Positions 1,187-59,663 of a stretch of DNA of 64,000 nucleotides are shown one piece after another (position 1 is the first letter of the stretch; every line of letters starts with the position of its first letter). Made by a program: the position numbers and the translations under genes. The DNA is taken from NCBI GenBank assembly GCA_015183035.1, contig JACZZP010000002.1:2294001-2358000 (forward strand), read 5' to 3'. The stretch is from Meloidogyne chitwoodi (taxonomy: Eukaryota > Nematoda > Chromadorea > Rhabditida > Meloidogynidae). The notes under the pieces are model-generated. The model was not told the DNA's origin. It did not search any database and saw only the letters and a program-made list of their open reading frames with translations.

Positions 1187-1204
1187 TTTTAGTAATTTTT
1201 TTAA

Positions 1205-1696: not shown

Positions 1697-1791
1697 TTTC
1701 TTTTAAAAATTTTATAAAATAATAAATAATGAATACAATAAATGTTTAAGAATAAAATCAAATATATGAATAAAATCACTTATATACTTTT

Positions 1792-3780: not shown

Positions 3781-3829
3781 TTTTATTGAATTTTATTAAA
3801 ATGATACAATATGAAAAAATGAATGTCTT

Positions 3830-4915
3830 TTATACTAATTGTGATTCATGTATCCATTCTCTTTCTGGGTAACCAATGAATTTAACTAATACCTCATATG
3901 TTCCATCATCTCTTTTCTTTTTTCTAACAATTTTTTCTATACGGTACTCTGTTGCCGCATCTTTTTTCACCTTAGATATTTCATCTTCATAGAAAGAACC
4001 TTTGAATTTTTCACCTTTATCATCGCGCAATTTATATAATATAGGGTTAACATGACCTTTTACTTTTTCAACCTCCAATATTTCATCACCCCAGTTTGGA
4101 AGATATCCTTTTTCAAAATTACCCTTATCTCTACTAATTCTTACTTAATCATCTTTTTTGAATTTTGGTTTCTTTTTATTTTTATTAAAGAAAATATTGC
4201 CATAAATTTTTTTCCATACTTTTTGAGCATTTTTAAAATTGACGTCAATTGGACGCAAGCCATGTACACGACAAAAAGATTTATTTATTCCTACAACAAT
4301 TTTTGGTAAAATATCAATCCAATTTTGTGTTTTATTTTGAGAGAAATACCGATAGAGTCTTTGTTTTAAATTTCTAATTCCTCTTTCAGCTAAAGATGCT
4401 TTTACTAAAGAATGATTTGGTTGATATTTTTCTATTTGTTCTTTTTCAAATAATTCTTTTAATTGATGATTTATAAATTCTTTCCCTTTGTCTGAAAAAA
4501 TTCTGTGAGGTTTCATAGGCATTTGTGCAAGGAGAATATGAAAAGCTTCCAGCATGTCACCTGTTTTCTTTGATTTTAAAGGGACAGTAAAGACTTGTTT
4601 AGACAAAACATCAATTCCAAATAATATATATTTATTTCCTCTATTATGTCTAGAAAGTGCCTGCATATCTGCTAAATCTACTTGTACGTCAGTCATAAAA
4701 CCTGCTGCAATAGTTTTACTCCTGCGAAAAAAGACCCTTTTGGGGCGCATAAGAGTATAGGTGCGGTGTCCTTCCAAATAATTTTTAATTACATCTCTAG
4801 GAATATGTTTAAATGTTTTCTTTGCTTCTTTCCATAAACTATCTATACCAGCATATGCTGAAGGAGACTCAGGATCATTATAAAGTTTATCAAGGAGTTT
4901 TGTAAAATCTGCCAT
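3830..4915 (-). pseudogene. Maverick retroviral-type integrase with chromodomain, interrupted by one in-frame stop
   Basis: The preferred start is the ATG at 4915; the upstream TTG codon is not credible. Counting from it, the rve core has a D,D-35-E-type triad: Asp80 in the QVDLAD motif, Asp142 in FSDKG and Glu177 in AER. The ORF stops at 4145-4147 (TAA) directly after a Lys-rich tract. Reading through in the same frame gives the usual Maverick tail (RISRDKGNF, LPNWGDE) and then a chromodomain ending in KFIGYPEREWIHESQLV at 3830. The break is a single nonsense codon, not a frameshift. In Mavericks this enzyme integrates the element DNA, and the chromodomain is thought to guide chromatin targeting. 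Functional status depends on whether the stop is fixed, read through or a sequencing error. Confidence 0.85.
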
Positions 4916-4929
4916 TTTTATGAATAAAA

Positions 4930-6027
4930 TTACCAAAGTGTTGGTTTAAATCGTTTTGTATTTACTTCTTTACGTTTAGCATTTATAAGTCTTTTCATCC
5001 ACTTTATTCCTGCTATTTCTGATTGTTTCTTAGTAACAGACATTCTAATTCTTTTTTCTTCTCCATCTGGTGGACCATCTCTTTTTCTTTTTAATTTTTT
5101 ATTTCTATTGATATTATCTTGAATACGAGCTTGAAGTAATGCATGCTGATCAAGCGGAACTTTAAACTTTTGACTAGCTCTTCTTCTCCTTAGGAGTACT
5201 TTTTTCTTATGAACTCGAGCACGAATTTTTTGTTGCGTCAACTTTCTGTCTTGTTGTACATCTTTTGACTCATCTTCAGACTCAATATTTGGATCAGCTA
5301 CTTGTCTTCTCTTTGACTCATTAAATTCCTCAGAATCAGATAGTTCTCGCTTTATACTTTGAATAGGAATAGGCGGAGGATGAGGACTTAAAGGAGCAAT
5401 AATATTTGAGTCCAGTCTTACATTTTTCTTTTGTTTTCTTTTCTTTGGAATCGGAATTTTTGATTCTTTTATATTTTTATTTGTTTTAAATTTTTTTGAC
5501 TCTTCGTTATTCGTTTGTATATTTCTCTTTCGAGTTTGATGTGATGTTGATGGTCCTGCAGGAAAATCTTCTATTAATACACTTTGTCTACTTCTAGGCA
5601 GAGAAGGAGGTATCGTTGAATTTGAAATAGTTGGTACAATATTATATGCTTTATTTTGTTGTTCTCTAGGGTACGAAGAAAATGAAAAATTATCACTCAT
5701 CCAATAGTTATCGTCGTCGTCATCATCTCCATAATCATTAATGGATGGAATATAGGCTGAAGGTCTTGAATTATTCTTGGGCACAATTACACCTTTAGAT
5801 TTATTTACAACTTCTACTTTAACTGGTCTATTTTCTCTCTCATTTCTCAAATTTAAATAACGCCTCAAATCTTGATTATAATGAACATTTTTAGATGATT
5901 CGCTTTCTTTTTTTCTTTTAGTTTTTTCTAAAGTACGTCTGATAAAATCGAGGTTAGGTTCACCTACATCATTTGTTGTAAGACCTCTATAAATATCTTC
6001 TGGGACAAGAATAAATTTATTTGCCAT
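4930..6027 (-). CDS. Maverick-associated basic disordered protein, function unknown
   Basis: This encodes 365 residues and its end is 14 bases from the integrase ATG. The N-terminus (FILVPEDIYRGL) resembles the conserved start of a protein often found beside the integrase in Polintons; no function is assigned. The middle has an acidic run (GDDDDDDN), Pro-rich segments and many Lys/Arg clusters. The C-terminal third is strongly basic (KKKVLLRRRRASQKF; KLKRKRDGPPDGEEKRIR). The composition suggests a DNA-packing or nuclear protein of the virion core, which is inference. The frame is undamaged, unlike the neighbouring integrase. Confidence 0.6.
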   Translation of the reverse strand: MANKFILVPEDIYRGLTTNDVGEPNLDFIRRTLEKTKRKKESESSKNVHYNQDLRRYLNLRNERENRPVKVEVVNKSKGVIVPKNNSRPSAYIPSINDYGDDDDDDNYWMSDNFSFSSYPREQQNKAYNIVPTISNSTIPPSLPRSRQSVLIEDFPAGPSTSHQTRKRNIQTNNEESKKFKTNKNIKESKIPIPKKRKQKKNVRLDSNIIAPLSPHPPPIPIQSIKRELSDSEEFNESKRRQVADPNIESEDESKDVQQDRKLTQQKIRARVHKKKVLLRRRRASQKFKVPLDQHALLQARIQDNINRNKKLKRKRDGPPDGEEKRIRMSVTKKQSEIAGIKWMKRLINAKRKEVNTKRFKPTLW

Positions 6028-6081
6028 TTTTTTATTAAAATTTTATAAAATAAAATAATATTAATGAATGAAAAATTTTTA

Positions 6082-6462
6082 TTAACTATCACTATCGCTT
6101 TTTATAATCTTTTTTCCTAGTTCAATAAGTATTGGTGTAAGTAAAGCTGCTAAAACACCACCAACCCCACTTCCTTTCTGTACAAGTATTTTTCTTGCTC
6201 CTTTTTCGCTTCTAGCACGGCTCATCCGACGAACAAAATTAGCATACGGTAAGAGACGTTTCTTCTGGCGAGTAGTTAAATTATATCTAGCTTTAACAAT
6301 ATTCAAACATATTTCTGCAATAGCAAGTAGATGTTGACTATTTGCTTGTTTTAAAAGGCGGCGGCGTTTCTTTTCTGACCGAGTTTTTACCAATAATTTT
6401 AAGAAATTTCCATTTTCAATAATAAGTGGACTAATATTACACTTGAATTTACTAAATGCCAT
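6082..6462 (-). CDS. Maverick small core-type protein
   Basis: This encodes 126 residues, and its start overlaps the stop of the ATPase gene by about 11 bases. The pattern is a basic KKRRRLLKQA motif, a helical segment with IAEICLNIV, a second basic run (RQKKRLLPYANFVRRMSRAR), then KILVQKGSG and a hydrophobic tail VLAALLTPILIEL. This arrangement recurs in Polintons and related animal elements in an uncharacterised small protein. The basic body with a Gly-hydrophobic C-terminus fits a virion core or membrane-interacting role. No catalytic motif is visible. Confidence 0.55.
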   Translation of the reverse strand: MAFSKFKCNISPLIIENGNFLKLLVKTRSEKKRRRLLKQANSQHLLAIAEICLNIVKARYNLTTRQKKRLLPYANFVRRMSRARSEKGARKILVQKGSGVGGVLAALLTPILIELGKKIIKSDSDS

Positions 6463-7108
6463 TTTTAGGAATAAAAATAATTTTTTCTAAATCGTTTTTA
6501 AATATATTTGTACGAAGACGAAGTGTTGGATCTGAAGAAGCATGCATATCAATTAAAAGATATCCATAAGGAACATTAGTTGCTTGACGATATGCATCGA
6601 GAAAATAATCTAATTTCTTTGGGAAAAGCTGGGCACCTATATTTCTTACAGAGAGTACTGAATTTGGAGAACGCATAATAATTAAATATTGTGCATTTTG
6701 ACGAGCTACTTTAATTTTCTTTTCAAATAAATTTTGTGTAACAAATACTATAGAAAATTTTTGGTGATGTGATTTTTTAGTAAACAATTCTGATAAATAT
6801 TTTTCATCAATAGATAAAAGTAAATCATCAAGTATAACAAGAGATGGTTTTGGTAGTCGTTTAATTACATCTTCAGGTGGTACACCAGCAAAAACACTTA
6901 TACCAGATTTTTGAAGGATGGGGACAATATTACTCATTTCACCAAAACAATATAAAATACTTTTAGGAGGTGGGTCGATTAGTTCTGCTGCTTGAGAAAT
7001 AAATTTTAGGAGAAAAGTACTTTTCCCACTGGAACTAGGTCCAGAAATAATTAAACCAAATGGTAATTTAAATTTTAATTCTTTATTTGAAAAATTAAGT
7101 GATTCCAT
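6452..7108 (-). CDS. Maverick genome-packaging ATPase (FtsK/HerA type)
   Basis: This encodes 218 residues. Walker A is GPSSSGKST at residues 23-31. Walker B is LVILDD, with the acidic pair at 94-95. A FVTQN sensor-like motif follows near residue 120. The length of about 220 residues is normal for Polinton and adintovirus A32-like packaging ATPases, which drive DNA into the preformed capsid. The gene overlaps the downstream small core-type gene slightly, a compact layout seen in these elements. The frame is intact and the ATP-binding residues are present, so this is one of the better preserved genes of the element. Confidence 0.88.
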   Translation of the reverse strand: MESLNFSNKELKFKLPFGLIISGPSSSGKSTFLLKFISQAAELIDPPPKSILYCFGEMSNIVPILQKSGISVFAGVPPEDVIKRLPKPSLVILDDLLLSIDEKYLSELFTKKSHHQKFSIVFVTQNLFEKKIKVARQNAQYLIIMRSPNSVLSVRNIGAQLFPKKLDYFLDAYRQATNVPYGYLLIDMHASSDPTLRLRTNIFKNDLEKIIFIPKNGI

Positions 7109-7129
7109 ATTAAATACAAAAAAAAATAA

Positions 7130-7872
7130 TTAAAATGATTGTGAGTTTACAGCATCTTTAAAACGAAAAGATAAAGGTGAATTATCATCTATATTTTCAA
7201 TAAAAGGAAGTGGTTCACTTGTACTTCTCTTCTCACGTTCTTTAACTTCTTCTTCTTGTCCCACGACGTTCTGAATTTCAATCATCTTTTTTGGAGTACT
7301 AGTAGCTGTAGTAGTAGTAGTATCAATATTGTCGAAAAACTCTTGAAGAATATTTTCAAATTTCTCCTCCTCTTTTATATCCTTTGAAGATTTATCTTCT
7401 TGTTTAATTTTCTTTGCCGGTGGGGATGACAGTGATTCTATAGGGTGTAAATTTTCATTTTTCTCTGGCTGAACTTTTTGTAGTACAGGAATTGTTGCAC
7501 AAGGTGGAACTCCGTGTTGAATATTGAAAACACGACCTTTGTTTTTTATCTGAAATTTTACTATAATATTTAAATATTGAAAATAACCTTGAAAAAACAG
7601 TGTCCTGGAAGATCATAAATTATGTCAAAAGGTATGAAAGTGTGGGCTTTTATGCGTGTACAATAACATGTTACACCTTCTTTTGTTACAACAAAGTCAA
7701 TCTCGACTTCTGAGCCCTTACATTCACGGCAGCGACCAGCATGATCGAAAGGAACAAAACGAGGTGTAGAAATCCGTTTAGATGCAGAAATAGTAAGTCC
7801 GTTTGCTGTAATATTAAATTCCACTTCGGGAAGAATTTGTTGAGATTTCTTGTTGTTAATATTAAGAGCCAT
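7130..7872 (-). CDS. Spliced gene of unknown function beside the Maverick ATPase, with a Cys motif
   Basis: Exon 1 is 7588..7872 (95 codons) and exon 2 is 7130..7549 (139 codons plus stop). They are separated by a 38-nt intron at 7550..7587 with GTTATT at the donor and TTTCAG at the acceptor; phase is 0 on both sides. Without splicing the frame stops five codons later. Exon 1 contains a possible zinc site (CRECKG about 20 residues before CYC). Exon 2 is acidic and low in complexity, with a KEEEKFENILQEFF helix and a Thr run. Family not recognised. It is on the same strand as the virion genes and 21 bases upstream of the ATPase ATG, so it probably belongs to the element. Confidence 0.6.
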
Positions 7873-9359: not shown

Positions 9360-12300
9360 TTAGAAAAATTCTAGGCCATCAGCAACAATATTTTTAATCA
9401 TTTTATTCTTTGATGGATTCTCTTCCTCAACGTACGGTGCGAAAATTCTGAATGAGTCAGGTGTACGAACTCTCGAAAGAGCTGTATATAGGTTACCATG
9501 ACCAAACACTTGATGTGTAAGGTCGAGTCCAACTCTGGATACAGTTTGACCTTGGGCCTTCATGATCGTCATTGCATATGCAAGTCGAACAGGAAACTGC
9601 AAACGTCTAAATTTTATTCCTTCTGGTCTTGGATCTTCATAGTCGCACCAACATTTTGGAATACAAACCATTGTTCCTGCGCCAGCCACAGACCCGGTTA
9701 CAATCTCTACTCTCAGTATTTCATCACCTAATTCGCGAACTATCATTCGAGTTCCATTTACAAGTCCTCGAGACACTCCAATATTCTTCAAAAGTATAAT
9801 AATGCAACCTAATTTGAGATGTAACCGGTGTGGTGGAAGATTTGCCGGATCCAAAGTATTTAACTGTTCTACTTGCTGTTCGATCTCATCAATATCCATT
9901 GGCTTATCAACTTTTGATTCATCAGTTGACATATATGTTCTCTCGTTACCCTTTATACGTTTAAGCATATCCTCATTTATGTCCTTAACAGTATCATTAT
10001 GTGGCGCTAATATGAGGTTGTGAATGAGCTCTTTTGGATTCAATAGAGCTTTACCATTATCAGTAACAAAATTCATTAGTTCCTGGCGCGAGTTTACGAT
10101 GTTCTTTTTTTGCATTTCTACAATATATCTATAGGTTCCGTTACCTATTTTGCGCAGCCAGTCTGAGAATTGCTTCTCATTTTGTCCCTGGCGCATATTG
10201 ATGTTCATACATTGAATATTCTTTTTGAAAAGAGTCCATAATAATGATGACTGTATGCAGGAATCCACTTGGTCTCTCATCGAACCTCCGGCTACAACTG
10301 GAAGCGATTGCTTAAAATCTCCGCTTAATATTATAACCTTCCCTCCGAATGGATTATTTCTGAAATGTGATGGTACCATTTGCTTGCAAACACGATCAAT
10401 AGCCTCTAACATATGCTTAGGAAGCATAGAAACTTCATCAATTATAATTACTTGGCTGTCTCTAATTCGTCTACCATGGAAACTTTGCATTGACACTGAC
10501 GGAGTGTAGTCCTGATCTACATTAATTCCAAATCTGAATACCGAGTGAACGGTAGCTCCTCCAGTTAGAAGTGTCGCCGCGCATCCTGTAAATGCCGAAG
10601 CAATTACTCGAATTCGCATGGCTCGTAATCGTGAAATGATGGTATTAAATAGATAAGTCTTTCCAGTGCCACCGTCGCCAGTGACAAAGATTGTATTAGA
10701 TGAACTTCCTTGGATGGCATTTTGAACATTTTGCCAAACTTTTTCTTGATCGTCATTTAATTTTCTTTCCGGTTTCTTTCCGCTGGCGAAATCATCTTCA
10801 TCTTTGTCTCCAAAGAAGAAATCATTGAGAGCATCATCAACGTTCTTTCGCATCCCGGGGGATGGTGAGTCAAGATTAAATTGGTCGTTAGTCATTCCAA
10901 AGTCCGATAGCTGAGCTTCAATATAAGCAAGTGCCTGATCAATCCGTCTTCTTCTTTCATTTCCATTTGGATCACTACCCATAATTGGTTTAAACATGTG
11001 TTCAATAAATTTTTCCCACAATTCACGAGCATTGCTCGGATTTCCAAAGACCAATACCTGAACAAACAGGTATCGCATTTCACGAGGATTGCTAAAATGC
11101 GAGGCCTCCTCCAATGTTCTCTCCCATACATTATCATCTGAAAGAAGACCTCTTAATCTGGCTGCTTCTACAAAAGTCTCACAAATAGTATCATTAACAT
11201 TCTTTAAAGCCGCAGGATCGCCAGGAAAATGGCGGAGAAGAATGTAAAGTGCAAACTTTTCCTGATCCCTTGGTGCTGGTCTGGGATGTATACGACCAAT
11301 TACATTCAATTTATTCCTAAATCTTTTCTTCCAACTCTTAGCTCTCTTATCATACCAGTAACGCTCAGGCATAAGTTCATAAAGCATAGTCTTAATTGAA
11401 TTATCATCGGATAAAACCCACTTTTTGTTAATCAATTCCCACGACTTCCCTGATGACCATTGTTGCCAGTACTCGGTGAGCATGGTTTTTGGAAGATCGT
11501 CAGGTATTTTTGCAATAGCTGTAGAAGCTCTCCCAGGTACAAAATATATGTTTTGTTCGTCTGGTAAATGCATTGGAAGTTTGTAGACTGTGTGCGAAAG
11601 TCGTGTATATGGCATTGAGTGGATCCTTGCATATGCCTCAGGTGCTGATCTATAGTACATTTGCGAATAATGTGCAGGCTCATCTATATCGACCTTCCCG
11701 CCTTCTAAACGAATGTATGATAGGGAAGCGCCCTTCATGGGGTACTTCATAGTATACTTCATATTAGTCTTTTCACCATAGCAGAATTCTACATTATGGT
11801 GTGTTTCGAATTTTAAAAGAATGAATGGATTAAATGGTGTAACATGAGCATTCGTGAATTCGGTGAGAACTCCACCCCTTTTAAGCCAAACTGTTTCACC
11901 TCCATCTTCAGGACTTGGTCGATAATAGACAGCTGGTCGATCGTCGAATAAGATAGTTCTATTTGAATATTCTTTAGGAAAAAATTTTGAACATTGGCCT
12001 TTAGCATTTTTCTCGCCGCAAAAAGCGGGATTACAGTCATGTAGCTGATATTTTAATATAAGCTCACGAAGGCGTCTTAAGCCTTCGGCACGTTGACTTT
12101 TATCATTCTTGTCAGGTAGTGATGGTATATGCGCCCAAATATAACTTTCAATGACTTTAGGGATGGCTGGAATATCTGTGGCCATTACTCTGTGAAAATG
12201 CGGTCCTCCTCTTTTTTGGAATTCCATGCTTTCTGCGTAACCTAATTGTATACCAAATATTGAGCGTTGATTCAAATCATAATGGATCTCCCTTACTTTA

Positions 12301-15196
12301 TCAGCGTAGAAGCGCATGATAATGTCAGGTCGATCAATTAGAGTTTGTCCATTATTGTAAAATTCTTTTTGCATTTCAGGCCATTTTGGATTAGAAGTAA
12401 AGGTAAGCATAAACATGGCGCATCCTCGCTTGCGTGTTCGATTAATAATCGTGCACGAATCAGTATATTTTACTTTAAAATATGCCCTAAAACCTGGCAT
12501 ATTACTTCTAAAAAGAACGACACGTCCAATTTTATCAGCGGAGGGTAGCCCGCCTTGCTTAGCCATATAATCTAATAAATGTCGCGGCAATTCAGCGCGT
12601 AAATCCATGTGGTCTTGGCGGTAGTATTCGAAAACTTGCGAATCAATACGTGCAGCAATATCAAGTATGTATTTCTGACTTAAACCACCACCGGAACTCC
12701 AAATATGATGATATTTGTCGTTTTCCGGATCTCTTATGCCAAAACGATAACGGTAAAAAGCTCTAATCGAAAGATTTTGACGAGACCTATTTGGTTCGTC
12801 ACCATAGTTTTCCACTGACCCGTTATCGCTTTCAGCAATAGAGGCGGTTTCAGAATTTGAGTCATCAAAGTCTTTTTGTGAATTAATTGAATGTTTGTGT
12901 GGTCTTAAATAAGGTATACTAGATGTATTCCCTCGTCCGCAAGCATAAACATGCAAGGGTAGAGAATAGAATCAGTCATTGAATGCGTGGGCCATAATTC
13001 TGTCACTTTTCCTTTTTTAGTTATCCATATACCCTTTATTGGTGGTGGTTCATCTGTAGCAGATGACCAAATTGCAAACACTGTTGATTAATTTTGGCAT
13101 GGAAGATTTACTTGCCTCGGATGAAGATTCGGATCCAGGATATTTGCAGGTGCATTTTTATCGCTTACAAGTATTATTTTAAAATTATGTAGTTGGTCAG
13201 GATTATTTTGTTCTAACTCCTTGTAAAATTCATATGAATTCCTAAGAATTGCCGCCATAGGATGATTAACTCGAATAATTTCATCGAGTACACGGAAAAG
13301 ATGTGGATTTTTCCGACTCCAATCATCAAAGCTAACGTTATTTACGCGATGTTCTGTGGCTTCTTCAGAATCCAGAATGTAAAGCTGGTCAAATGATGGA
13401 ATTTGATGGTCATCGGCAAGTAAGCTCCCAATTCTCCTCGAGAATTCGCCATTCAATAAAACAGGCATTGTTCCACCAGCTGGTGCATTTTGTCTACCAA
13501 CAGAAAGTGATCCAAAAGCAAATAAAGTGTTATATTTAGCTTCATTCTTTATGTATTCTTTAGAATCCATTGATTCACCTGTAATTAGTCTTTCATAGTC
13601 TATTGGATATACTTTAAGTGGATTAAGTCTTACACGACCATCCGCGCAGGCTAGGCATTTTTCAGATTTTAGAAGTTTATTATTACAATGTGCGCAAGTA
13701 CTGTTCCCTAATTGCCCTGAGTGGTAATACTCAGGAAGGTGTCCGGATTTGAAGGATGCACAACCCATCCCTCTATGCTTAGTATAACATCGTTTAGTGG
13801 GAAGTACTTGGTCTCCTTTCGGAGTTTCAATTGTATTAACGCTTGTTTTCGGTGTTGATTGTCTTGAATGAGATGGAATATTTGTTTCTATTATTTTCCT
13901 TTGCGGATGTTCAACGTTTTGTCGTGAATGATACTCAACATTGTCCCCAGAATACAACTGGTTCAAATGCCACAGAATTCGTTTCTTCTCAGTGTTAATG
14001 TTCAAAGTAGGCATTGACAAATTACGATTGTTCATTAGCCATGCTTCAGCATAAAGACAGATGAAATAGCCACAACTATTACCATCCTCCTGAAGCGGGT
14101 ACAAATTTGTGTCAAATGTTCCAATGTGTAATAGATAATCTGGCGTGTTGGTCAATTGTGAAATAATTTCTTTTAATTTTGGAAGTCTTTGAGGATGATA
14201 ATTAATGTGTTCTTCATGTAATCTATGCGGTGTATTAGGAAGAGAGTCAAAGAAATAAACTCCGAACTCTCTGTCCCAAATTATGATTGTCCAATGACCT
14301 GGTAAATGCACAGGTAATAGCAAAACCTCAATTTCTCTATCTTGATCTGTTATAAAAGTGTACTGATTATATGTTAAACCGGCGAATTGCTGTATAGCTG
14401 GATCCGTTATAAGGGGATCAACAACAATGGTCTTTTTTCCAGATATTTTGGCTAAATAGCATAGGAAAGGAAAAATAAACGCATCATTGAGCCATGCACC
14501 TAAATTATTCCACATTACTTCAATTAATCGAGGTCCAGTTTTATCAGAATCACGTTCATAAAGAGGCAATACTGTCCTACGACAGATACTGGATGCATTT
14601 GTTATCCTTTCAGTTGCAAATTCAAGTGTGTCTAACGAAGAGAAATTTATTTTATTTTCAATATTTGAAGGTTCAAGAATTTGTTCATATATTTCTAAAG
14701 ATTTTTTCGGTCTACCACCTTTACGAATATTCTTCTGTGGACGGCCTGCTTTATTTAATAAGTTTTCATTTAATATGTATGAAGTATTAGAAGACCCTGA
14801 GGCCATGCTTGATGTTTCCATTGACTCTGAAGACGAGTCTCGTGTTTTTCGCGATTTTCTAGGAACACAAACCTCCGAAGAGATACTCAATGGTGTGAGC
14901 GGTTCCACAATACTTTCAATTAATTCATTTTCAACAATATCATTTACACTAAAATTAAATCTGCCCGAGCACGAAGGCTTCCCAAGGCCATTAGTTTCAT
15001 TTAAATTATCAATATTTGTTGTTTCATTTATATTTAAGTCCTGAAGAGGATTGTTTTGTGTTGCCAGATCTTTATACTGAACAGACTGCTCCTGTTGGGC
15101 CGACTGATCAGAGTCCTGAAGAGGACTGTTTGGGATTGTGGCATTCAAATACTCTGTACGTTTCTTTTTTCGCTTTAATTTATCTTTATTTGGCAT
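9360..15196 (-). pseudogene. Helitron transposase: Ulp1-type protease + AT-hooks + HUH Rep + Pif1-type helicase (two breaks)
   Basis: The N-terminal part runs 15196..13088. The ATG at 15196 (MPNKDKLKRKKK) is preferred over the ORF opening at 15400, which covers repeat-like sequence. Two AT-hook-like GRP motifs lie near residues 151 and 161. A C48/Ulp1 fold follows with His301, Asp317, Gln369 and Cys375 (LPGHW, FFDS, QEDGNSCG). Next come a Cys cluster and the usual Helitron N-terminal region (FSRRIGSLLADD). A TAA at 13088-13090 interrupts the frame. The same frame then continues with Helitron-like sequence to about 12907, and a frameshift leads into the 9360..12956 ORF. In that ORF, HFH is at 253-255 (HUH motif), paired Tyr401/Tyr405 form YTMKYPMKG, Walker A GDGGTGKT is at 760-767, Walker B IIIDEVSM is near 840, and the terminal motif is HGNLYTALSRVR. 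The enzyme normally drives rolling-circle transposition. Two breaks suggest recent inactivation or sequence errors. Confidence 0.85.
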
Positions 15197-16965
15197 TATT
15201 TCATGATTTTTCTGTCCGGTCGTGGTAAAAGGCTGTGGTTGGAGGATGCGGAGACCTTTTGGGAATCTGCCCACAGGAAAAGGTTCCAAAAATTGGGGGA
15301 AGAAAAGGAGTTCCCCATCGATCCACGAACCGTGCCATAATGGCATTAAATAAACCTTATTTTGGCAATAAGCCATTCGTATCCATGCCCAAGCGTTCAA
15401 ACGGGCTCAAGAGGCTGTTACATATTTGCCAGAGGCAACTAAGAGGCTAAGTTACATTCTGTCAAAGACAGCTAAGAGTCTGTTACTATTTGGCAAAAAA
15501 GCCATTTACCTCCGTTTACCTTTATCCACCATTACCTCGTCCATTCAGATATAATTATTTTAATATTTATCTTCCCATAAAATTTTAATTAACCGAGTAA
15601 GTTCATAACCGTGTGTGTTCAATATATTATTCAAAATCGTAAAAATTCAAATTCGTGATTCATGTCCGTGTATATAAAAAGGTTTATGATTCATAAGCGT
15701 TCAAATTTATGATCATAACCATTCAAATTATTAATTCATGTCCGTGTATTTAAGGTGCCGCTACTGGGTCGCCTTGTTTCGCGTGGTACAACGGCTATAA
15801 AGGCACTATCATTGACAGTCCAAGCCGAATTTCTCATTTTTAACCGCGTCCCTGGACAAGTCCAAGGTTAGCAACACAATGAAGTGTTCCCAGTACACGC
15901 GACGAGGACGCTTACGGAGGATAATGAGATCCTTGTGTACCATATCTCTGCTTATGGAAAACTGGTGTGCATTCACCTGTGCGGGTACCATGAATTGGCG
16001 TATTTCAAGGATCCTCACGGTAAAATCTCCTCTCATTGATCCCTTACCACATACGGAAAAATTGTTGTTTCCATTGGCTGCATAAACGCGTTCTCCTTAG
16101 AGATTAAGCTTCCACCTCTCTCGAAGTTGCCTCAACAAAACTCATATGTAGCTCGGTGGCTGGACTCGGCTCAGGGTCATAAACTTTAGCTTGTAGGAGA
16201 ATACCAAAAAAAAATTTTGGCGTGACCCCTCCGCACAGTGTAGTTTTGTGGCCCCTGAATAGAGAGCGAAAAACGTATGGACCACTTCTTTTCTCAGAAC
16301 CTCAGACTGCTTGTAGGAGAATACCAAAAAAAATTTTGGCATGACCCCTTCGCACAGTCATGTTTGAGGCCCCTAGATTGGAAGCAGAGAGCCATACGGT
16401 TCCCTCTCTCAATCCAAGTCCAGCCTAATCAATGACCGAAGTCACCAGTAGGCTACATAAAGCGGATCGCCTCGTGGGGCTTCAGAACCGGAATTGGAAC
16501 CGGAGTGTGACACCCTCCCCAAAATTGGGTACAAACGGATGTCAGTCACATGGTTCCGCCGTCGGATTTTAATACCAGGGTATTTATGGTTGCAAGAGTT
16601 TAACCCAACGCAGGTCTTCACCCAACGCTAGGCGTAGCAGGCAATAAGCGACTATGTAGCGGCTTAAAGCGTACTACGCTCTCACAGAGCCATTAGGATA
16701 GCGGTTCAAGGCGTGCGGGATGCCTCCTCTCCAAGAACTTTCTTCACGTACCACAACACAATCATGATTTTGGCCGGTCACGTATTAATTGTACGGCCCG
16801 AGTAACCATGATCATGCTGTGGGCTACACTATCCATACCCTTCCGCAATATGGACGAGCTACAGGAAATCCTGGCAAACTCACCCAAAGGGAAACTACAC
16901 TCGGGAAAAACCTTCCGGGCCCGGCCCGGGTTCGCTCTCTAGTGTTAATTTTAATTTTTACTACA

Positions 16966-18479: not shown

Positions 18480-19372
18480 GCCTTGTTTTTCTATATATAT
18501 AATTTCCAGATAAGCATTTTCTCTATATTTTGGTACATTTTTTATTATTTTTAAAGCTCTTATTGGTGTATTTTTAATTCTTAAATCTTTAACTTGTACA
18601 ACCTTTCCAAATGTTCCTTCTCCAAGTTTTTTAATTATTTCAACTAAAAAAAAATTTTTTTTTAATTGTTATTTATGGACATTTTTTTAATTTGAGGATT
18701 ACTTATTTTGTTCAATAGTGATCTCATCTATTTAAAAAAATATAAAAATACTAATTATAATTTCAAGTTTATATCAGTGAAATGTCCATATTATAAACAT
18801 TTTTTCAATTAAAAATATTTTCTTAACAAAGAAAAAATATTAAATAATTTAAATATTAAACGTACATCTGTTATAAATAATTTGTCCTTTATAATAAATC
18901 AAATGCCCTTCTTTGTCATCAATTACTGGAGGATGGATTTGTTGTGGCAAAACTACTTGTTGAGGTTTGGTTTGGACATCTAATGGAATAACAACTTCTA
19001 CAGATGTAGATAAGACTTTAGATAATTGTTTTTGTTTAATGTTACTATTTTTATTATTTTGACTAATTATCTTTGATTTTTTCGTTTGAGAAGCTTCATT
19101 AGAAATATCAATAGACTTTTCAAGTTCAGTCCTTTTAAAAGATTGGTGACGCGCTCGTTCTTCACTATCGTAGAAAAGTTTTTTATTCTGTTCCTTCACA
19201 TGTTTAAGATTGTAGTTTTCATAAGAATCAAAATGACTTGGATGTTTTCGACTCTAAAAAAATAAAAATTAAAAAGAAGGTCTTATTTTAGACGATAGAA
19301 AAATTAAAAAAGAGGGAAAAATATTAAATTTAACAATTAAACCTTTAAGTTATCTCTTATATATTTCGACAT
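18480..19372 (-). pseudogene. CLK/LAMMER-family dual-specificity kinase, 5' part only
   Basis: Three exons fit in phase. Exon 1 is 19343..19372 (MSKYIRDNLK). Exon 2 is 18866..19253, ending at GTACGT, and carries a Lys/Ser-rich region and the CLK-type junction EGHLIYYKGQIIYNR. Exon 3 starts at 18643 and gives the glycine loop [10 protein letters not shown] and the VAIK-type lysine region [20 protein letters not shown]. In the family this enzyme phosphorylates SR splicing factors in the nucleus. Similarity ends near 18490. Beyond that is unrelated GC-rich repeat sequence, and no other kinase subdomain follows in the window. Either a mobile-element block lies within the gene and the rest is off-window, or this is a truncated copy. 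Confidence 0.75.
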
Positions 19373-45969: not shown

Positions 45970-48900
45970 ATGCTCTGTAGTTGCTGTGGACAATTCTTAA
46001 CTTTAAGGAAGAATTATAATGGTAATCTTGGTTGGATTTGTGATTTTTGTTTTTGGGGGAATTCATCTATTCCATTGCCACCAAAAAGTAAGTTACAAGC
46101 TTGAAAATAATTTTATTCGATGTCAAAATTTGTGGGATTTTATAAATTTTTAATTTAAAGGATCAAATAAGAATCTAAGCTTAACTTTAGGAAATAAAAT
46201 GTTCGTAACATTTTTCTAATAGATGACGGCCTGGTTTTTTCTTTTGCCAGAGGCCAGACATTTTTAACATTTGGGGTGTGTTAGGCCTGGAAATTCCATT
46301 AACTAGAGCTCGGAATTCGATCGCTATCGACATATTAAACTAGAGTACAAGCTTAATATTTTTAAAAATTTCGTTATTAAGTCGACGCCTTCATCTTGAT
46401 TAAATTGATTTTTTAATAAAATTTGTTTTCTTACAATTTTATTTATCTGCAATTTTTTGATATATTAAGGGCTAAATTTTAAATAAATTTTAAAAATTTA
46501 ATTTTTTCGATTATTTGTTTAAATTTTTTATTTATATTTAGTTCCTAAATGGACACTTCAAAAAAGAGGAAAAGCAACCATAATTTATCCAAAAAATAAA
46601 ATTTGTCCACTTTGTAAAGAAACAGTAAGTCATGGAAACAATTGGTCGCGACATCTCAAACGACGCCATCCTGAACATTTTGTTGAAGAGGTTAATATTT
46701 TATTAAAAAAATTAAATTTTTTTTTAATATTTATTGAGAGCAACATTTTTTATTGTTGAGAAATTCAGAAATTATTAGTTATGTTTATAAAAATTAGGCA
46801 TATTTTCTGAAGAAGATATGAGTGAAAAAAAGGTGGTGCGAAACTTGCAGATCGAAATTTGCAGATAAATAATTTTTCAGACCAACATAGATTTAAAAAA
46901 AATTAGGAAAAAAATAAAATGTAAAAATTTTATCAAATTAGTTTTTATAAATGAGGTGCTACATTGAACAACCTAAATTTCGGGACAGAAATTTTAATAT
47001 TTATTTTTAAATTTTTTAAATTTTTTTTTAAATTTTTTACTCTAATGTCGGTCTTCAAAATTTGTTATCTGCAAAATTCTTTCTGCAAGTTTCGACACGC
47101 TGAATAAAAAATAGAAAGCAAGCCGAGGGCTTTTCAATTCTTTTTTATGATTAACTAATTCAATTTCATTAATTTTAACTTATTTAATTTTTATTGAAAA
47201 ATACTTATTGTTAAATTTTTTTTTAAATTTAATTTTGTAATTTAATTAAAATTAATTGTTGCTCTCATTTTAAATATTTTTTACAATTTGAGTGTTTAAA
47301 TAAGTTTTACAATTTGAGTGTTTAATTAAGTTTTACAATTTGAGTGTTTAATTAAGTTTTACAATTTGAGTGTTTAAATAGTTTTACAATTTGAGTGTTT
47401 AAATAGGTTTTACAATTTGAGTGTTTAATTAAGTTTTACAATTTGAGTGTTTAAATAGTTTTACAATTTGAGTGTTTAAATAGGTTTTACAATTTGAGTG
47501 TTTAATTAAGTTTTACAATTTGAGTGTTTAAATAGTTTTACAATTTGAGTGTTTAAATAGGTTTTACAATTTGAGTGTTTAATTAAGTATTACAATTTGA
47601 GTGTTTAAATAAGTTTTACAATTTGAGTGTTTATCTATGTTTTACAATTTGAGTGTTTAATTAAGTTTTACAAGACTAATAGATCGATGATTCTATTTTT
47701 AACATTCCTTTTTTATTTTTCAGCGTGTTTTTTCAAAATCTCTTACAGAACAAAATATGTTGGAAATAACTGGTGCATCGAAAGAAAAAGTAATTATTTT
47801 TTAATAATATTTTAGTAATATTTATTTTACCAGAAAATCATTATTAAAATTTTAATTAAATTATTAAAAAATTTTTTAAATGTTTCTATAAAATTTTTCT
47901 TCTATTTCAGAATATTCATCAACATCATGCATTTAGCTCTTCCGCTACACAAATTAATATTGGTTAATATTTTTATTTTTTTTTTAAATTTAATTGACAA
48001 AATAAAATTAAAAATTAATTATATTAAAAAATTAAATTTTTAACACATGCCGCCATTTTAAATTTCAGATCCAATTACTGGTAAATTTATTGTTGATGGT
48101 CAAAATTTGGAAGATGTATAAATTTTTTTTATTTTTTAATAATTTATAAAAATATAACGATTAATTATTTTCAGAGACTTGTTCCGCCAACTCCAAATAC
48201 CGATAATTTTTATAAACAGTATTTACAAAATGTTTTTGGAGATGGGAGTCATCAAGAAGGAGGAGATTTTGATATGATTTTAGATAAGCAATCGGTAAAA
48301 ATTAATTTTTTTTTGATTTTTTAAAACTGAAAAGTTTTTTTTTATTCGAAAAATTAAATTTTCAAAAATAAATTTTTAGTTGAAAAAAATAAAAATTTTT
48401 CAAATAGGTTAAAAATGCATTTTAATTTAGCCAATTTAAAATGGATACTTGACTCTTTTTTATTTTTTAAATATATTTAATTTTTTTAAAGTTATTGGTT
48501 CAATCAATGTATGATGAAACGACGTCTTCTGCTGCTCCCGTAATTAAATGTTTTTGATAATTTTGAATAGTTTAATAGAATTATATGTAAAAAAATTAAA
48601 AAAAAATATTTATTATTTTTTAATTTATTTTTAATTCAGGTATTGGCTAAACCAAAGCATAAACAACAGCATGAAATCACTTCAACTTCTGCATCGGATC
48701 CATTTGTAATTAAAATTTTTATTTTTTTAAAAGTTAATTTTTAATTATATAAATATTTATGATGACAGAAATTTTTAAATATTTTTATTCTAAAGATTAT
48801 ATTAAAATAAATTTTAAATTTTTAGTCTCTCGAAACGTCTGAGCCATCACCCAATATTATTTGTTTACAACAAATAAAAGGGATCTTGTTTGGCTATGTA

Positions 48901-50014
48901 GGAGTAATTATTGATTATAAAGATAATGAAGGATTTCTCGAATATGAAACAGAAGGTAAGGTTTATTTAATATTTTTAATTTGATAATTTTGTAATATCA
49001 GATTTTTAAAATATTCACTTTTTTAATTTAGCAAAAAAATCGCCTACTTATTTTACTGACATAGAAGCATTCAAGCTAGGAAAATTTTTATTATTTAATT
49101 ATGATAAAAAATATATGAATATAATTGGTTTTCTTTTAAAAAAAGAGGATCTTGGACAAAAGGTAAATTAAACAGCATAATAAATTTAATGGAAAAATTA
49201 AATACTTTCCGGAAAAATATTTATAAAACATTTTTTTGAAATTGATAAAAACATTCTGAAAATAATAAAACGGTCAAACAACATTTCCAAAAAAAACTAG
49301 ATAAATAATTTAAAAAAACTTTCGGGGAATATTATAATTTTAAAAAATAATTAAATATTTGTAGAATCCAATTGTTGATCGTGCCATAGATTCACTTGAC
49401 GGAAAATTTAAACTTGGAATAATTAGAAATTGTGGCTTCTCCTACCAAAATAATACAAGTCCTCGTATTGATGAAGATTCTAGAGTTAAGCATGTTATCG
49501 AATCTTGTCGAATAAAACAAAGAATGCCTGATGCGAACTTTTTTCGGGTATTAAAATATTAATTTTAAATAAAATAATTTTTTAAAGATTGTATTGCAAA
49601 AAATTGGTTTGTCGGCTTCTGAGTGTATTTTTATAGATGCGTCGGAGGAAAACTGTCAAGGAGCTGCGACTCTTGGAATTAACCCAATTTTGGTAATAAA
49701 CAATAATTTAAAAACTTAATAATTTTTAAAATATAACATTAAAAGTATTTTCCGGAAAAGAATTACATTTCTTAAGCATACACATTATGCAAACAAAAAT
49801 AAACAGAAAATATCCGGAAAACTGAGAAAAACATAAGAGAAATACAAAACATTAAAAGATAAATATTAAACATTATTTAAAAAACATAATCTAAAAATTC
49901 CAGAATATAAAAAATCTTATAAAATTTATTTGTTTTAATTTTTAGATTCAAAACGGCAACATAAAGGCAGCGATAGTTACGTTGGGAAATTTGTTGAAAA
50001 TTAATTTGCTTTAA
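45970..50014 (+). CDS. Zinc-finger protein fused to a catalytically degenerate HAD (EPHX2/ACAD10-type) domain
   Basis: Thirteen exons in phase: 45970-46087, 46542-46690, 47724-47789, 47911-47962, 48069-48115, 48175-48294, 48492-48539, 48640-48705, 48826-48955, 49032-49162, 49365-49547, 49588-49692 and 49946-50014, giving 427 residues. The N-terminus has a C-x2-C...C-x2-C zinc ribbon (CSCC, CDFC) and then a C2H2-type finger (CPLCKETV...WSRHLKRRH). A linker carries FYKQYLQNVFGDGSHQEGG. Residues ~223-427 resemble the HAD domain of EPHX2/ACAD10: IESCRIKQRMPDANFF, CIFIDASEENCQGAATLGI. The motif I Asp is Gly (ILFGYVGVII), motif II Thr/Ser is Arg-Asn-Cys, motif III Lys is not in place, and motif IV DD is DA. 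It is thus likely a non-enzymatic binding module. Intron 2 holds a minisatellite. Confidence 0.75.
47265..47672. repeat. Minisatellite, 27-28-bp unit (TTTTACAATTTGAGTGTTTAA...)
   Basis: About 14 tandem units of (G)TTTTACAATTTGAGTGTTTAA(A/T)(T)A(AG) lie in intron 2 of the zinc-finger/HAD gene. The paralogous intron of unit 2 (58165-58364) has no array. Linker length alternates (AATAG, AATAGG, ATTAAG) in a higher-order pattern of three, which suggests block-wise expansion. Confidence 0.9.
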
Positions 50015-50078: not shown

Positions 50079-52183
50079 TAGAGTCCGAAAAAATAGGTCC
50101 GAAAAATTGAGAAATAGGTTCCTATTTTAGGCTCTTAAACTGTTAAAATAGGCGCTAAAAAGGTCGAAAAATGCTAAATAGGTTTGAATTTTAACCAAAT
50201 AGGTTCATTTTATTATGTTTACTAATATAAAAAATGTTTAAAAATGCCAAATTTTATTCTCTACGCTCACAATTGCAGATAATATACATTTCTAAATTGT
50301 TTTGAGTGAAATTAATCCTTCTGTCTGTTAAAATATTTTTATATATTGAGAAAGATCTCTCAACGTCACAACTAGTCATTGGTGCATATTTTAATGCGGA
50401 AATCATTTCTGGCGCCATATCTAAACAAGATCGCTCTCCTGACAAAACCTTAGAAACCTCAATCAAATGTTCAATTCCTGGATTCTTTCTTAATATGGAG
50501 TCAAATTTGTTTCGTACAATTAGGCCTACATCACCTCTTGACAATGACAATTTTTCTAATAAAATTAACTATTTTTAAAAATATTATTGAAAACCTTTAG
50601 TTTCTACCAAAATATCGAAAACTTGAGCTAGGGTTAAGCCGTGACCTTCGAGTTGCTTAATTGAAGTAGAAATTATAGAAAAATTGGATTTAAATATGCA
50701 AGTTTTTGTGAAATATCAGAATTTCTAAACAATTCCTTTGATTTCTTTATGCACGCTGCGTCATCCGAATCAAAAGCTTCGATGACCTTAAAAAATATAA
50801 TTGAATTGATAAAAACTTAAGCAACCTCTTTGATATGAATAAAATTATCGGCATAGAAACTAGCCGCATCAATCCAACTACTCCAACGCGTTAACACTGG
50901 TTGTGGTGGCAAAGAAAGCCATGGCAGTAATTCCTTGTACCGATGAATTCGAGATGGAGCCTTTGTAAAAACCTAATTTATTGATTTAATATTTGAAAAA
51001 CGTTAGCTGTACCTTTTTAATATTTGAAATTAAAAGATTAACTTCAGGAAAGCAACCTCTAACTTCCTCTGCCACACGATTAAGGCCATGGCATATACAA
51101 ATTGTATGAATCATATTTGGCATCAGTGCCGATAGCACATCGCGCGCGGCTTTAACCATCTAACTGGCGCCATCCGTTACTAGAAGCAAAACACGCTCTT
51201 CTTTGATGTTCATTTCTTCTAGATTATTTTTAAAAATTTTTCTCCTAGATCAAATTTAAAAATTTTTACATACTTAAGCCATCTAGTACAAAACGTGAAA
51301 TTGTAGCATGAGTAGTTTTTTCTAGACATTTAACGGAAACAAGATGCGGAACATGGAATTTATCAGAATCTAATCGTCCAATTAACAAATTAGCAATTGA
51401 GCGACCAATAATATCTGTAGATTCATCCACTGTTACCCAGCAAAAGTCATGACTAAGATTTTTCGTTATACGGTTAATTGTCTAAAAGAATCTAATAAGT
51501 TTTATTATTAAATAAACCGCATCATAACATGTCTTCAATTGTTTTCGAACTGTGCATTCTGATGGAATTTTTCGTTTACAATATTTTTCTAAGAAGTGCC
51601 TGAATGACTGACTATTAATTTTATCAATTGGAATGTTTGCTCCAACAAGTGCATCGCATAAATCTTTGGCAAAAGGATCCAATTCAATTTCCCCAAATGA
51701 TTTCTCAATGAATTGTTGTTTGCTGCTGCCTCGTAAGGACGAATTTGCTTGATGCTTTCCCGAATCGTTGTGTTGTTTTAGATGTGACAATTTTTCACAT
51801 GGAACCTAAATACAGATAAAAATACTAAGTTAAAGATAAAGAAAACCTGTTGGTTGCAGTTTTGACAAAAAATTATTTTTCCATTGCTTGAATAAGTTCC
51901 TTTTGGAAATGTAGAAATCCATTCCCGGATTAATGCAGATTGACTTTTTTTAGTTTTTCCCATGATTTTCAAGATATTTTTCAAAAAACCTAAAATAGGT
52001 TATAAAAAGTTCGAAATAGGTTCAAAATAGATTTTAGGCTTAAAAATGCCCAAATAGGTTTTTTAGGCTCAAATAGGTCCAATATAGAAACATGGTATCG
52101 CGTTAAAAAGGTGTTTTTTGAGCTTTATTCATCAGTTCATGTTTGCAAAAAAAATAGGTCAAAACCTAAAATTTCGGACTCTA
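50079..52183 (-). mobile_element. hAT transposon, 2105 bp, 8-bp target duplication ATTATCAG
   Basis: The ends are TAGAGTCCGAAA and its inverse TTTCGGACTCTA. ATTATCAG flanks both sides (50071-50078 and 52184-52191), the 8-bp duplication of hAT elements. Subterminal sequence is full of AAATAGGT words in both orientations. The minus-strand gene inside encodes a BED-finger hAT transposase. The element lies just 3' of the zinc-finger/HAD gene and is absent from unit 2. Confidence 0.93.
50254..51963 (-). pseudogene. hAT transposase (BED finger, DDE core, hATC), damaged
   Basis: Exons in transcript order: 51847..51963, 51518..51805, 51270..51481, 51013..51241, 50826..50972, about 50600..50786, and a last one ending at 50254. 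The BED-type finger spans exons 1-2 (FCQNCNQQ, then LSHLKQHNDSGKH). The catalytic region has WVTVDESTDIIGRSIANLLIG, then VLLLVTDGAS and ICICHGLNRVAEEV. RWSSWIDAASFYADNF is typical mid-protein sequence. The C-terminal dimerisation region has APMTSCDVERSFSIYKNIL. Two lesions: an in-frame TAG at 51170-51172 within the DGAS...MVKAA motif where Tyr is usual, and a frameshift near 50690 after LAYLNP. The copy is probably inactive but recent, as its ends are intact. Confidence 0.85.
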
Positions 52184-56971: not shown

Positions 56972-59663
56972 ATGAGTTTTTGTTGTGGTTGTTGGGAATT
57001 AGCGATTGTTGGAAATGATTACAAATTTATTGGACCTGGTTTTATGTGTACAAAATGCACTCAAGCTAATGCTCCTGTTAGAACAATACCCCCTCTTTTG
57101 CAATGTTGTCTATGCGCTGAAACTGTTGGAGAATTCAAATTAATTGAAAATAATGGATTTGTTTGCTTGGCAATCCTTAACAATTGGGGCTCCACCTCAA
57201 ATATTCGCAGTGGCATAGTAAAAATGTGTTTTTAGGGGTTATCGAGGTCGCTGATTACGAATTTGATCTTATCACAAATCCTTATCATTTTATCACTAAT
57301 TTTAAAAATCAAAGATTTTATCATGGATACTTTCCAAATTACTCTGCTTATTAATAAAAAAGAATCTGCCATTAAATTTTTACAACAACGTAACATTTTA
57401 CATTGTACCCCCACTATGCCCAGCATGTAATCAGCAAATGAGCGAAAATCTTGATAAAATCTTTGATTTTTAAAATTAGTGATAAAATGATAAGGATTTG
57501 TGATAAGATCAAATTCGTAATCAGCGACCTCGATAACCCCTAAAAACACATTTTTACTATGCCACTGCGAATATTTGAGGTGGAGCCCCAATTGTTAAGG
57601 ATTGCCGTTTGCTTCAAGTGTAAGGACAATTTTACATTTCCGCAGGAAATTAAAGGTTATATTTTTGTTTAAAATTACTTTTTTCGGTACAACTTTTATC
57701 TCAAATTTGAGATTGAGCTGGTTTTTAACCAAGAACTGGGTTTTTCTTCGAACAAGAGCCAGTCATTTTTTAGCATTTTGGGTATTCTTTGGGCCTGGGT
57801 TTTCTTTGAGACGGCTTGGAATCTGGCTTTTTGTTAATAAATTAAACCTTGAGTGCAGGCTTATAATTTTTAAAATAGATCTAAATTCTAGAGCCGTTGA
57901 TTTAATTTTTGTAAAATTTGTTTCCTTAAATTTCCACTTACCCAGTTTTGTTTTTTCTGAATTATTAATTAATTTTAAAAATTTATTTCTTTCGATAATT
58001 AAATATAAATTTTTTATTTATATTTAGTGCCTGCTTGGACACAAAAGACGCATAAACTCTCCACTTTGGCTTATCCAGAAGACGGCGTTTGCATTATTTG
58101 TAAGACTTTTGTTGGACACACATATTGGAATCGACATGTCAAGAGATATCACTCTGGAAATGACGTTAATATTTTATAAAAAACTCAAATTTTTAATTAT
58201 TTATCGGGGGCCTCAATTTTTTAATAATGGATTTTTTTAGTTTTATGTTGTAATTGAAAATAAATTTGCTCCCTTAAAATATTTTTTAGTTTCGAGTTTA
58301 ATTAAATGTATTACTAGACTTGTAAATCGATAATTCTATTTCTAACACATCTTTTGTTTTTCAGCGTATTTTTTCAAAATCTCTTGATGTTTGCAATTTG
58401 AAGGCATTAACTGGAGAATCTACTACTAAAGCAAAAGTAATTAATTTTAATAATTTTTATTTATTATTGAAAATTTTTTTACTTTTTTTTTTTATAAAAA
58501 ACTTTTCTATAAATTTTTATTATTTTCAGAATGCGCCAAGTTCTTCTACAACAGGTTAATCTTTTTTACTCTAATTGAAAAAATAAAATTTATTTTAATA
58601 AGCAATGCTATTAATTTTAATAAAATTTCAGTTCCACTTAATGCTGAGGTTATATTATTGGAAGATCCAACTTTGGATAAAGATGTAAAAAAATTTTTTT
58701 TATAATATTTAAAAATAAACTAAATTTTTTAATTAATTTACAGATGGTTTCTGGTCAGTACAAAGTATTACAACAAACACAAAATCTTTCTGTAAGTTAT
58801 TTTTCTAGCATTAAATTTTTGAATAATTTATTTAATTATTAAAAAAAAAAATTTTTTAATTTTATAATTGTAAATATATTTACAAATAAAGATAAATTAT
58901 TTTAATAAAATTAAATTTTTATTCTTCTGCCAAAATTAATTTTATGCTTTTAATTTTCAGGGAGGACTCATTTCACAATCTGCGAATGCTCCTTTTTATA
59001 TGGAACAGTATTTAACACAAAATATGCTTCAGGATGGAACAGTTTTTATTGGAGATGAAAATCAAAAGGAAGGAGGAGCAATTACTAATAAACTGAGAGA
59101 TGGAGAAGCGGTAAAAAATTAATTTAATTTTTTGGAACTTAATTTCAAAAAAATAAATAAAATTTATTTTTTAATATTTTTAGACGGCAAGTTTTCTTAG
59201 TCAAGCAAATCCTCAAATTGCTGGTATGTTTGGTAGTCAATTTGGAACAGGTAATGAAATGTGTGAAGAAACAATATTGACATTTGGAAAAGATGTAAAA
59301 AAAATTTTTTATTAATTTTTTTGATACCTAAACAAAATTTTGAAAAATTTACAGGTACTTTCTTCAGAGCAGACTACTGCAGTACAACAGAATTTAAATC
59401 CTGTTCATCCTGAAAATATACAATCAACCTCTACAGCTACTGTTATAATTATTTCTTAATAATTTTATAAAATTTAAAACGATTAATTTTTTAAAAAATT
59501 ATTCTGCTGCAAAAATTAATTTTATGCTTTTAATTTTCAGAGATTCTTTGAACCTACCAACACTGATTTTTGTTTACAACAATATATACAACGTTTGTTT
59601 GATGGTGCTAGTGGAAGTGTTAATCAACAGAGAGGAGGAAATCCAGATAATGTTTTTAAGTAA
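56972..59663 (+). pseudogene. Paralogous zinc-finger gene without HAD domain, first exon split by a transposon
   Basis: Exons: 56972-57168 plus 57615-57655 (one exon interrupted by an insertion), 58028-58164, 58365-58436, 58530-58554, 58632-58684, 58744-58791, 58961-59110, 59184-59294, 59355-59441 and 59541-59663. Without the insertion the phase is perfect (347 residues). It has two zinc-ribbon-like modules (CCGC/CTKC and CCLC/C-x2-C, the second hit by the insertion), then a finger CIICKTFVGHTYWNRHVKRYH. Downstream are two copies of a QYL...DG...GG motif (YMEQYLTQNMLQDG; LQQYIQRLFDGASG) related to the single one in the unit 1 gene. No HAD sequence follows; UGT sequence comes next. If 59442 is not used as donor, the protein ends at 59457. 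Confidence 0.7.
57169..57606. mobile_element. 438-bp fold-back element in a coding exon, target duplication GTTTGCTT
   Basis: The ends GGCAATCCTTAACAATTGGGGC and GCCCCAATTGTTAAGGATTGCC pair perfectly. Pairing continues for about 155 bp per arm (57169-57324 with 57451-57606), with few or no mismatches. GTTTGCTT is duplicated at 57161-57168 and 57607-57614. The near-identity of the arms implies a recent insertion. The 8-bp duplication fits hAT, P or Merlin; the GG end favours Merlin, which is tentative. Both strands show ORFs across it, which are artefacts. Confidence 0.9.

What the first reader, a model, noticed from the sequence alone, without database searches (positions are those of the whole stretch)
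45970..50014. Zinc-ribbon + C2H2 finger fused to a HAD domain that has lost its catalytic residues
The C-terminal 200 residues follow the EPHX2/ACAD10 HAD pattern, yet the nucleophile Asp is Gly and motifs II, III and IV are also altered. A DNA/RNA-binding N-terminus on a dead phosphatase fold is an unusual combination and the best candidate here for an undescribed protein type.
Basis: partly seen in the sequence, partly recalled or inferred. Interest (0 to 1): 0.82.

Follow-up and report, generated by a model that had tools for sequence, protein, structure and literature searches.

The report
Zinc-finger gene fused to dead phosphatase
In a root-knot nematode genome, a small zinc-finger gene appears to have been joined to a copied phosphatase gene whose active site has since been lost, giving what looks like a chimeric protein with a non-catalytic phosphatase fold.

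Summary
Window 45970-50014 (+) splices into 13 exons with one open frame of 427 aa: a CxxC...CxxC ribbon, a C2H2/BED-like finger, a linker and a C-terminal HAD domain of the EPHX2-N-terminal type (TIGR02247 E 4.7e-18, below its curated cut-off; hhalign 99.5%). The nucleophile Asp, motif II Thr, motif III Lys and one motif IV Asp are replaced. The genome matches Meloidogyne chitwoodi Race 1. Both parent kinds lie on the same contig: an intact finger-less HAD gene about 394 kb away and a finger paralogue without HAD starting 7.5 kb downstream. The join appears to lie inside exon 9, and the HAD half has no start codon of its own before residue 294. A neutral-decay model expects 9-12 stop codons in the HAD part; there are none (0 of 2000 simulations). 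But its codons have diverged at least as much as its last intron, so constraint is loose. I read it as a chimeric gene with a pseudoenzyme HAD module. Transcription across the join, zinc binding and function are untested.

The parts
45970..46087 (+). Exon 1: start codon and CxxC-x17-CxxC zinc-ribbon-like motif
   Evidence: splice model; cysteine positions checked
46542..46690 (+). Exon 2; C2H2/BED-like finger C61-x2-C64-x12-H77-x4-H82 at 46604-46669
   Evidence: zf-BED E 0.09 and OrsD E 0.02, both below cut-off; 39.5% identical to window 58027-58152
47269..47673 (+). 26-bp tandem array inside intron 2
   Evidence: the exact 26-mer searched occurs 6 times in the genome, all in this array
47724..48294 (+). 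Exons 3-6 (47724-47789, 47911-47962, 48069-48115, 48175-48294): linker shared with the tandem paralogue
   Evidence: 47655-47812, which holds exon 3, is 75% identical in DNA to 58296-58458, E 2.8e-26
48492..48705 (+). Exons 7-8 (48492-48539, 48640-48705): linker
   Evidence: colinear with paralogue B exons 8-9 in the alignment, weakly similar
48826..48955 (+). Hybrid exon 9: sequence like B's terminal exon (to about 48873) running into HAD strand 1; motif I Asp replaced by Gly at 48892-48894
   Evidence: 22-column match (one gap on each side) to B exon 10, 0 of 2000 shuffles as good; HAD side aligns with exon 1 of the intact gene and keeps its phase-1 intron; no in-frame ATG
49032..49162 (+). 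Exon 10: degenerate HAD cap region
   Evidence: weakest-aligned part, shorter than the two matching exons of the intact gene
49365..49547 (+). Exon 11: HAD core; motif II Thr to Arg (49425-49427), motif III Lys to Met (49524-49526)
49588..49692 (+). Exon 12: HAD motif IV, FIDD changed to FIDA (49639-49641)
49946..50014 (+). Exon 13: last HAD helix and stop codon
57559..59663 (+). Tandem paralogue B: finger and linker exons, no HAD; 300-aa spliced model
   Evidence: tblastn of the window (E <= 1) shows no HAD match outside the fused gene; B's first-exon peptide is repetitive in the genome, so exon 1 is uncertain

Best explanation
This is a chimeric gene. A copy of a small zinc-finger gene was joined, inside its terminal exon, to a duplicate of the nematode EPHX2-N-terminal-like HAD phosphatase gene, removing the finger gene's stop and the phosphatase's start codon. 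The HAD part then lost its nucleophile and other catalytic residues but kept an open frame, its splice sites and its hydrophobic pattern. Shown here: the splice-compatible frame, both parent kinds, the lost catalytic residues, and fewer stops than neutral change would leave. Inferred: that it is transcribed across the join, that the cysteines bind zinc, and that the product is a non-enzymatic nucleic-acid- or protein-binding factor in which the HAD fold serves as a docking, ligand-sensing or dimerisation module.
For: One frame of 427 aa over 13 exons. An intact 203-aa HAD gene at C12:2738042-2739198 (-) with DLGG, TNN, RKP and FIDD motifs and no finger in its model; intron positions and phases match the window exons 9-13 apart from one intron that the window copy lacks. 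All 7 own-genome matches to that HAD protein lie at these two loci (which scores only the best candidates). Intron 12 still aligns with the intact gene's last intron at 71% over 271 bp, E 1.6e-28. Tandem paralogue B has the finger exon and linker exons in the same order and no HAD. Exon 9 against B exon 10: 1 of 2000 codon shuffles of the whole exon and 0 of 2000 dinucleotide shuffles of its first 65 bases score as well. No in-frame ATG in the HAD part until residue 294, past motif I. Neutral simulations gave 12.4 stops on average (8.8 without exon 10), 0 of 2000 had none, and hydrophobic and polar positions were kept better than in nearly all runs. The fused HAD keeps 11 of 16 columns conserved at 90% or more among 58 relatives; D11, K139 and D164 are among the 5 lost.
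Against: No RNA evidence was available. Fused and intact coding parts are 61% identical in DNA (65% without exon 10), no better than intron 12 (71%). NG86 dN/dS is 0.52 (dN 0.47, dS 0.91), a value that averages a constrained and a fast branch, so amino-acid constraint on the fused copy is weak. Searches for relatives of the whole protein (2850 candidates) and of the finger half (2407 candidates) found nothing at E <= 1, so there is no cross-species conservation to lean on. The finger is below every Pfam cut-off. The exon-9 match relies on colinearity: in a scan of the AT-rich window with the first 55 bases of exon 9, the 12 best other tiles (some overlapping, two on the opposite strand of the locus itself) scored 30-33, as high as the match to B exon 10.
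Confidence: 0.6

Rival explanations
1. Decaying relic: the finger gene is real, but the HAD tail is a pseudogene that happens still to read open.
For: Coding DNA has diverged at least as much as intron 12; catalytic residues are lost; no relatives found.
Against: Zero stops where 9-12 are expected under a neutral model at 78% A+T, and retained hydrophobic and polar patterns. The model puts all change on the fused branch and was applied to exons chosen for an open frame, so its strength is somewhat inflated.
Confidence: 0.2
2. Two adjacent genes: the finger gene ends in intron 8 and a separate HAD gene follows.
For: An AATAAA lies in intron 8 at 48806, a common hexamer in such AT-rich DNA. Database gene models that join HAD pieces to other sequence exist (P0007, P0084), so joined models need care.
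Against: The HAD frame has no ATG between the upstream stop at 48823 and residue 294, so a separate product would lack strand 1 and motif I; the start of exon 9 resembles finger-family sequence.
Confidence: 0.12
3. The HAD domain is still catalytic through other residues.
For: The first motif IV Asp, the motif II Asn, Pro140, Asn168, Ala172 and Gly176 (P0001 numbering) are kept.
Against: The nucleophile Asp, invariant in 58 of 58 relatives aligned, is Gly, and Lys139 is Met. HAD chemistry as I recall it needs the nucleophile.
Confidence: 0.04

Closest known systems
Intact standalone HAD paralogue at C12:2738042-2739198 and orthologues (M. graminicola Mgra_00006431 88%, M. hapla 76%, M. incognita 71%, Heterodera trifolii 49%)
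   Same: Same HAD subfamily, intron positions and C-terminus; 42% identity (80 of 192) to the fused domain
   Different: Standalone, starts at MSQQ, keeps all catalytic motifs, no zinc motifs
EPHX2 N-terminal phosphatase domain / TIGR02247
   Same: Closest curated family (E 4.7e-18); the predicted fold of the intact M. graminicola orthologue best matches human soluble epoxide hydrolase in the PDB
   Different: The fused domain lacks four of five catalytic residues and has no epoxide hydrolase partner
E. coli YihX (glucose-1-phosphatase)
   Same: Best PDB sequence match, over residues 350-408
   Different: A standalone bacterial phosphatase
Tandem paralogue B at 57559-59663 and finger clusters on C3 and C19
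   Same: Finger with a WxRH core; in B also the linker exons
   Different: No HAD match in B or in the C3 and C19 stretches examined

Membership tests
HAD superfamily, EPHX2-N-terminal-like (TIGR02247) | Profile match over the curated cut-off | tested here: not met
   65.7 bits against cut-off 125.4, E 4.7e-18; the intact paralogue also falls below it (97.5 bits)
HAD superfamily, EPHX2-N-terminal-like (TIGR02247) | Homology along the domain | tested here: met
   hhalign 99.5% over 184 columns; shared intron positions with the intact gene
HAD superfamily, EPHX2-N-terminal-like (TIGR02247) | Catalytic motifs I-IV | tested here: not met
   D to G, T to R, K to M, DD to DA: a homologue, not an expected enzyme
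C2H2/BED zinc finger proteins | C-x2-C-x12-H-x4-H spacing (recalled consensus) | tested here: met
   Positions checked
C2H2/BED zinc finger proteins | Profile match over the Pfam cut-off | tested here: not met
   zf-BED 13.3 bits against cut-off 20.6; zf-C2H2_4 13.5 against 27
C2H2/BED zinc finger proteins | Zinc and DNA/RNA binding | not testable with these tools
   Needs purified protein
Pseudoenzyme / pseudophosphatase (works-like claim) | Conserved fold, lost catalysis, retained under selection | tested here: inconclusive
   Lost residues and absence of stops shown; folded structure, expression and loss of activity not shown

The most novel reading that the evidence does not exclude
A functional nematode-specific factor created within or near the genus Meloidogyne by a microhomology join inside one exon, which turned a metabolic phosphatase copy into the ligand- or partner-binding half of a zinc-finger protein.
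Probability: 0.3. Interest if true: 0.6.

Novelty: new variant of a known kind. Interest (0 to 1): 0.42.

Why it matters
New genes made by exon-internal fusion are seldom caught with both parent kinds still in the same genome, an alignable intron and the catalytic losses countable. If transcribed, this locus would let the birth of a pseudoenzyme-containing protein be followed step by step across closely related root-knot nematodes and races.

Tried and rejected
Full-length protein search: 2850 candidates, none at E <= 1. Finger-half alignment search: 2407 candidates, none. These searches reach only relatives sharing exact 5-residue words and within a length range, so absence in other species is not proven.

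The gene at 18.6-19.3 kb (-), first suspected as a third family member, reads as a protein-kinase start (my reading) and was dropped. Telomere origin of the intron-2 repeat: the published M. hapla 16-mer (passages of PMC12643312) is different, a search of the main text of PMC10630426 for two short parts of the repeat found none, and the array lies about 0.54 Mb inside the contig; dropped.

Dating the duplication by tree failed: the fused copy groups with the Meloidogyne copies after Heterodera (91/93, not starred). The best tree puts it outside the five intact Meloidogyne copies (79/82, not starred), which would make the duplication older than these species; placing it with chitwoodi + graminicola is not rejected (AU p 0.297). 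Its branch is long, 1.55. Intron 9 showed no similarity to the intact gene's intron (665 of 1000 shuffles as good) and intron 11 only weak similarity (38 of 1000).

Literature: five searches; in the listings and abstract starts I saw no paper on this gene, and one search returned nothing. Passages only were seen of PMC9871597, PMC12614787, PMC12643312 and PMC10630426.

The second structure job was not used.

Full report
What is there. Joining 13 exons between 45970 and 50014 (+) gives a single 427-aa frame, with compatible phases and 12 of 12 introns GT-AG; two acceptors end in AAAG. Residues 3-27 form a CxxC-x17-CxxC ribbon-like motif and residues 61-82 a C-x2-C-x12-H-x4-H finger. No Pfam zinc model reaches its cut-off (zf-BED E 0.09). 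Residues 223-427 contain a HAD domain: Pfam HAD_2 is weak (E 0.003), but TIGR02247, the epoxide-hydrolase-N-terminal-like phosphatases, gives E 4.7e-18 (below its curated cut-off) and hhalign against 58 relatives gives 99.5%.

Whose genome. The assembly holding the window has 47,477,280 bases in 30 contigs. A conference abstract (passages of PMC9871597) gives 47.47 Mb and 30 contigs for Meloidogyne chitwoodi Race 1. The intact HAD paralogue is 88% identical to a M. graminicola protein. The species assignment rests on these matches.

The parents. The own-genome search with the fused protein found a second HAD copy on the same contig. It reads as a 203-aa, 6-exon standalone gene at C12:2738042-2739198 (-), about 394 kb from the fused gene, with DLGG, TNN, RKP and FIDD intact; one of its introns has a GC donor. 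All 7 matches to that HAD protein in the genome lie at these two loci (the search scores only the best candidates). Intron positions and phases agree, except that the window copy lacks one intron, and the last intron is still 71% identical over 271 bp. The finger half has a tandem paralogue, B, at 57559-59663, 7.5 kb beyond the end of the fused gene, with the same exon order, no HAD, and blocks of 73-77% DNA identity that reach into the introns. B's first-exon peptide is repeated across the genome, so its start is uncertain. More distant fingers cluster on contigs C3 and C19.

The join. Exon 9 starts with sequence resembling B's terminal exon (EPSPNIICLQQ against EPTNTDFCLQQ) at the expected colinear place, and turns into HAD strand 1. 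Both parents share CAACAA and, at protein level, QQ followed four residues later by LF. With the whole exon, 1 of 2000 codon shuffles matched B exon 10 as well. With its first 65 bases, 0 of 2000 dinucleotide shuffles did, while B exon 7 (1305 of 2000), window exon 6 (582) and the start region of the intact HAD gene (539) showed no excess; those 65 bases hold only about 20 of HAD origin. Against this, a scan of the AT-rich window with 55 bases found other tiles scoring 30-33, so the claim depends on colinearity. The HAD part has no in-frame ATG before residue 294, with a stop just upstream of exon 9 at 48823, so a separate HAD gene would lack motif I.

The dead active site. Of 11 columns invariant in 58 relatives, the fused domain keeps 7 and loses D11, G13, K139 and D164; of 16 columns conserved at 90% or more it keeps 11, and the intact paralogue keeps 16 of 16. 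Thr106 of motif II is Arg. AlphaFold2 on the intact M. graminicola orthologue (mean pLDDT 86) gives a fold whose best PDB matches are human soluble epoxide hydrolase. The fused protein itself was not modelled.

Decay or use? Simulating neutral change from the intact coding sequence to the observed divergence gave 12.4 stops on average (8.8 without poorly aligned exon 10), and 0 of 2000 runs in either set was free of stops. Hydrophobic positions stayed hydrophobic at least as often as observed in 0 and 15 of 2000 runs, polar positions stayed polar in 0 and 0, and codon position 2 was as conserved in 1 and 55. The simulation treats all change as lying on the fused branch and is applied to exons chosen for an open frame, so it overstates its case somewhat. 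On the other side, NG86 dN/dS against the intact copy is 0.52, and coding identity (61-65%) is no higher than that of the last intron (71%). The frame has been kept open while amino acids changed quickly, which fits a pseudoenzyme module under loose constraint better than either a dead gene or a working enzyme.

When. The tree puts the fused HAD with the Meloidogyne copies after the Heterodera split; the best tree has it outside the five intact Meloidogyne copies with weak support (79/82), and a place beside chitwoodi + graminicola is not rejected (p 0.297). No relative of the whole protein or of the finger half was found in a protein collection that does hold M. graminicola, M. hapla, M. incognita, M. 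enterolobii and H. trifolii proteins. That suggests, but does not prove, a lineage-specific gene; if the duplication is older than these species, losses or missed gene models would have to explain the absences.

Function. Most likely a non-catalytic, zinc-stabilised nucleic-acid- or protein-binding factor whose HAD fold provides docking, ligand sensing or dimerisation. This last step is inference. In five literature searches I saw no report of this gene; a M. chitwoodi reannotation exists (passages of PMC12614787), but its gene models were not available here.

Noticed in passing
window 500-7612 (-): A run of large reading frames that look like a Polinton/adintovirus-type element (integrase-like, ATPase-like, capsid-like by my own reading). 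Described only; no family search made.
   Followed up: no
window 9360-15406 (-): Long frames resembling a Helitron-type helicase (9360-12971) and a Ulp1-like protease (13088-15406), by my reading only.
   Followed up: no
window 50254-51805 (-): hAT-like transposase fragments directly downstream of the fused gene, between it and tandem paralogue B (my reading).
   Followed up: no
window 47269-47673: About 15-16 copies of a 26-bp tandem repeat inside intron 2; the exact 26-mer searched occurs 6 times in the genome, all here.
   Followed up: partly
L029 4556-4518 (-): The intact HAD paralogue appears to use a GC donor where the window copy has GT.
   Followed up: no
P0007 (M. hapla) and P0084 (M. 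floridensis): Odd database gene models: P0007 begins with a peptide like one encoded just upstream of the intact HAD gene in L029 (my reading), and P0084 joins HAD motif IV to a RING-like segment (sub-cut-off Pfam match). They may be model fusions and are a warning for automatic annotation here.
   Followed up: partly
L030 (C3) and L031 (C19): Very similar clusters of WxRH-type fingers on two contigs; C19 is only 99,878 bases long and may be an alternative haplotype.
   Followed up: no
window 18600-19253 (-): Looks like the start of a LAMMER/CLK-type kinase gene with a KHPSHF stretch upstream (my reading).
   Followed up: no
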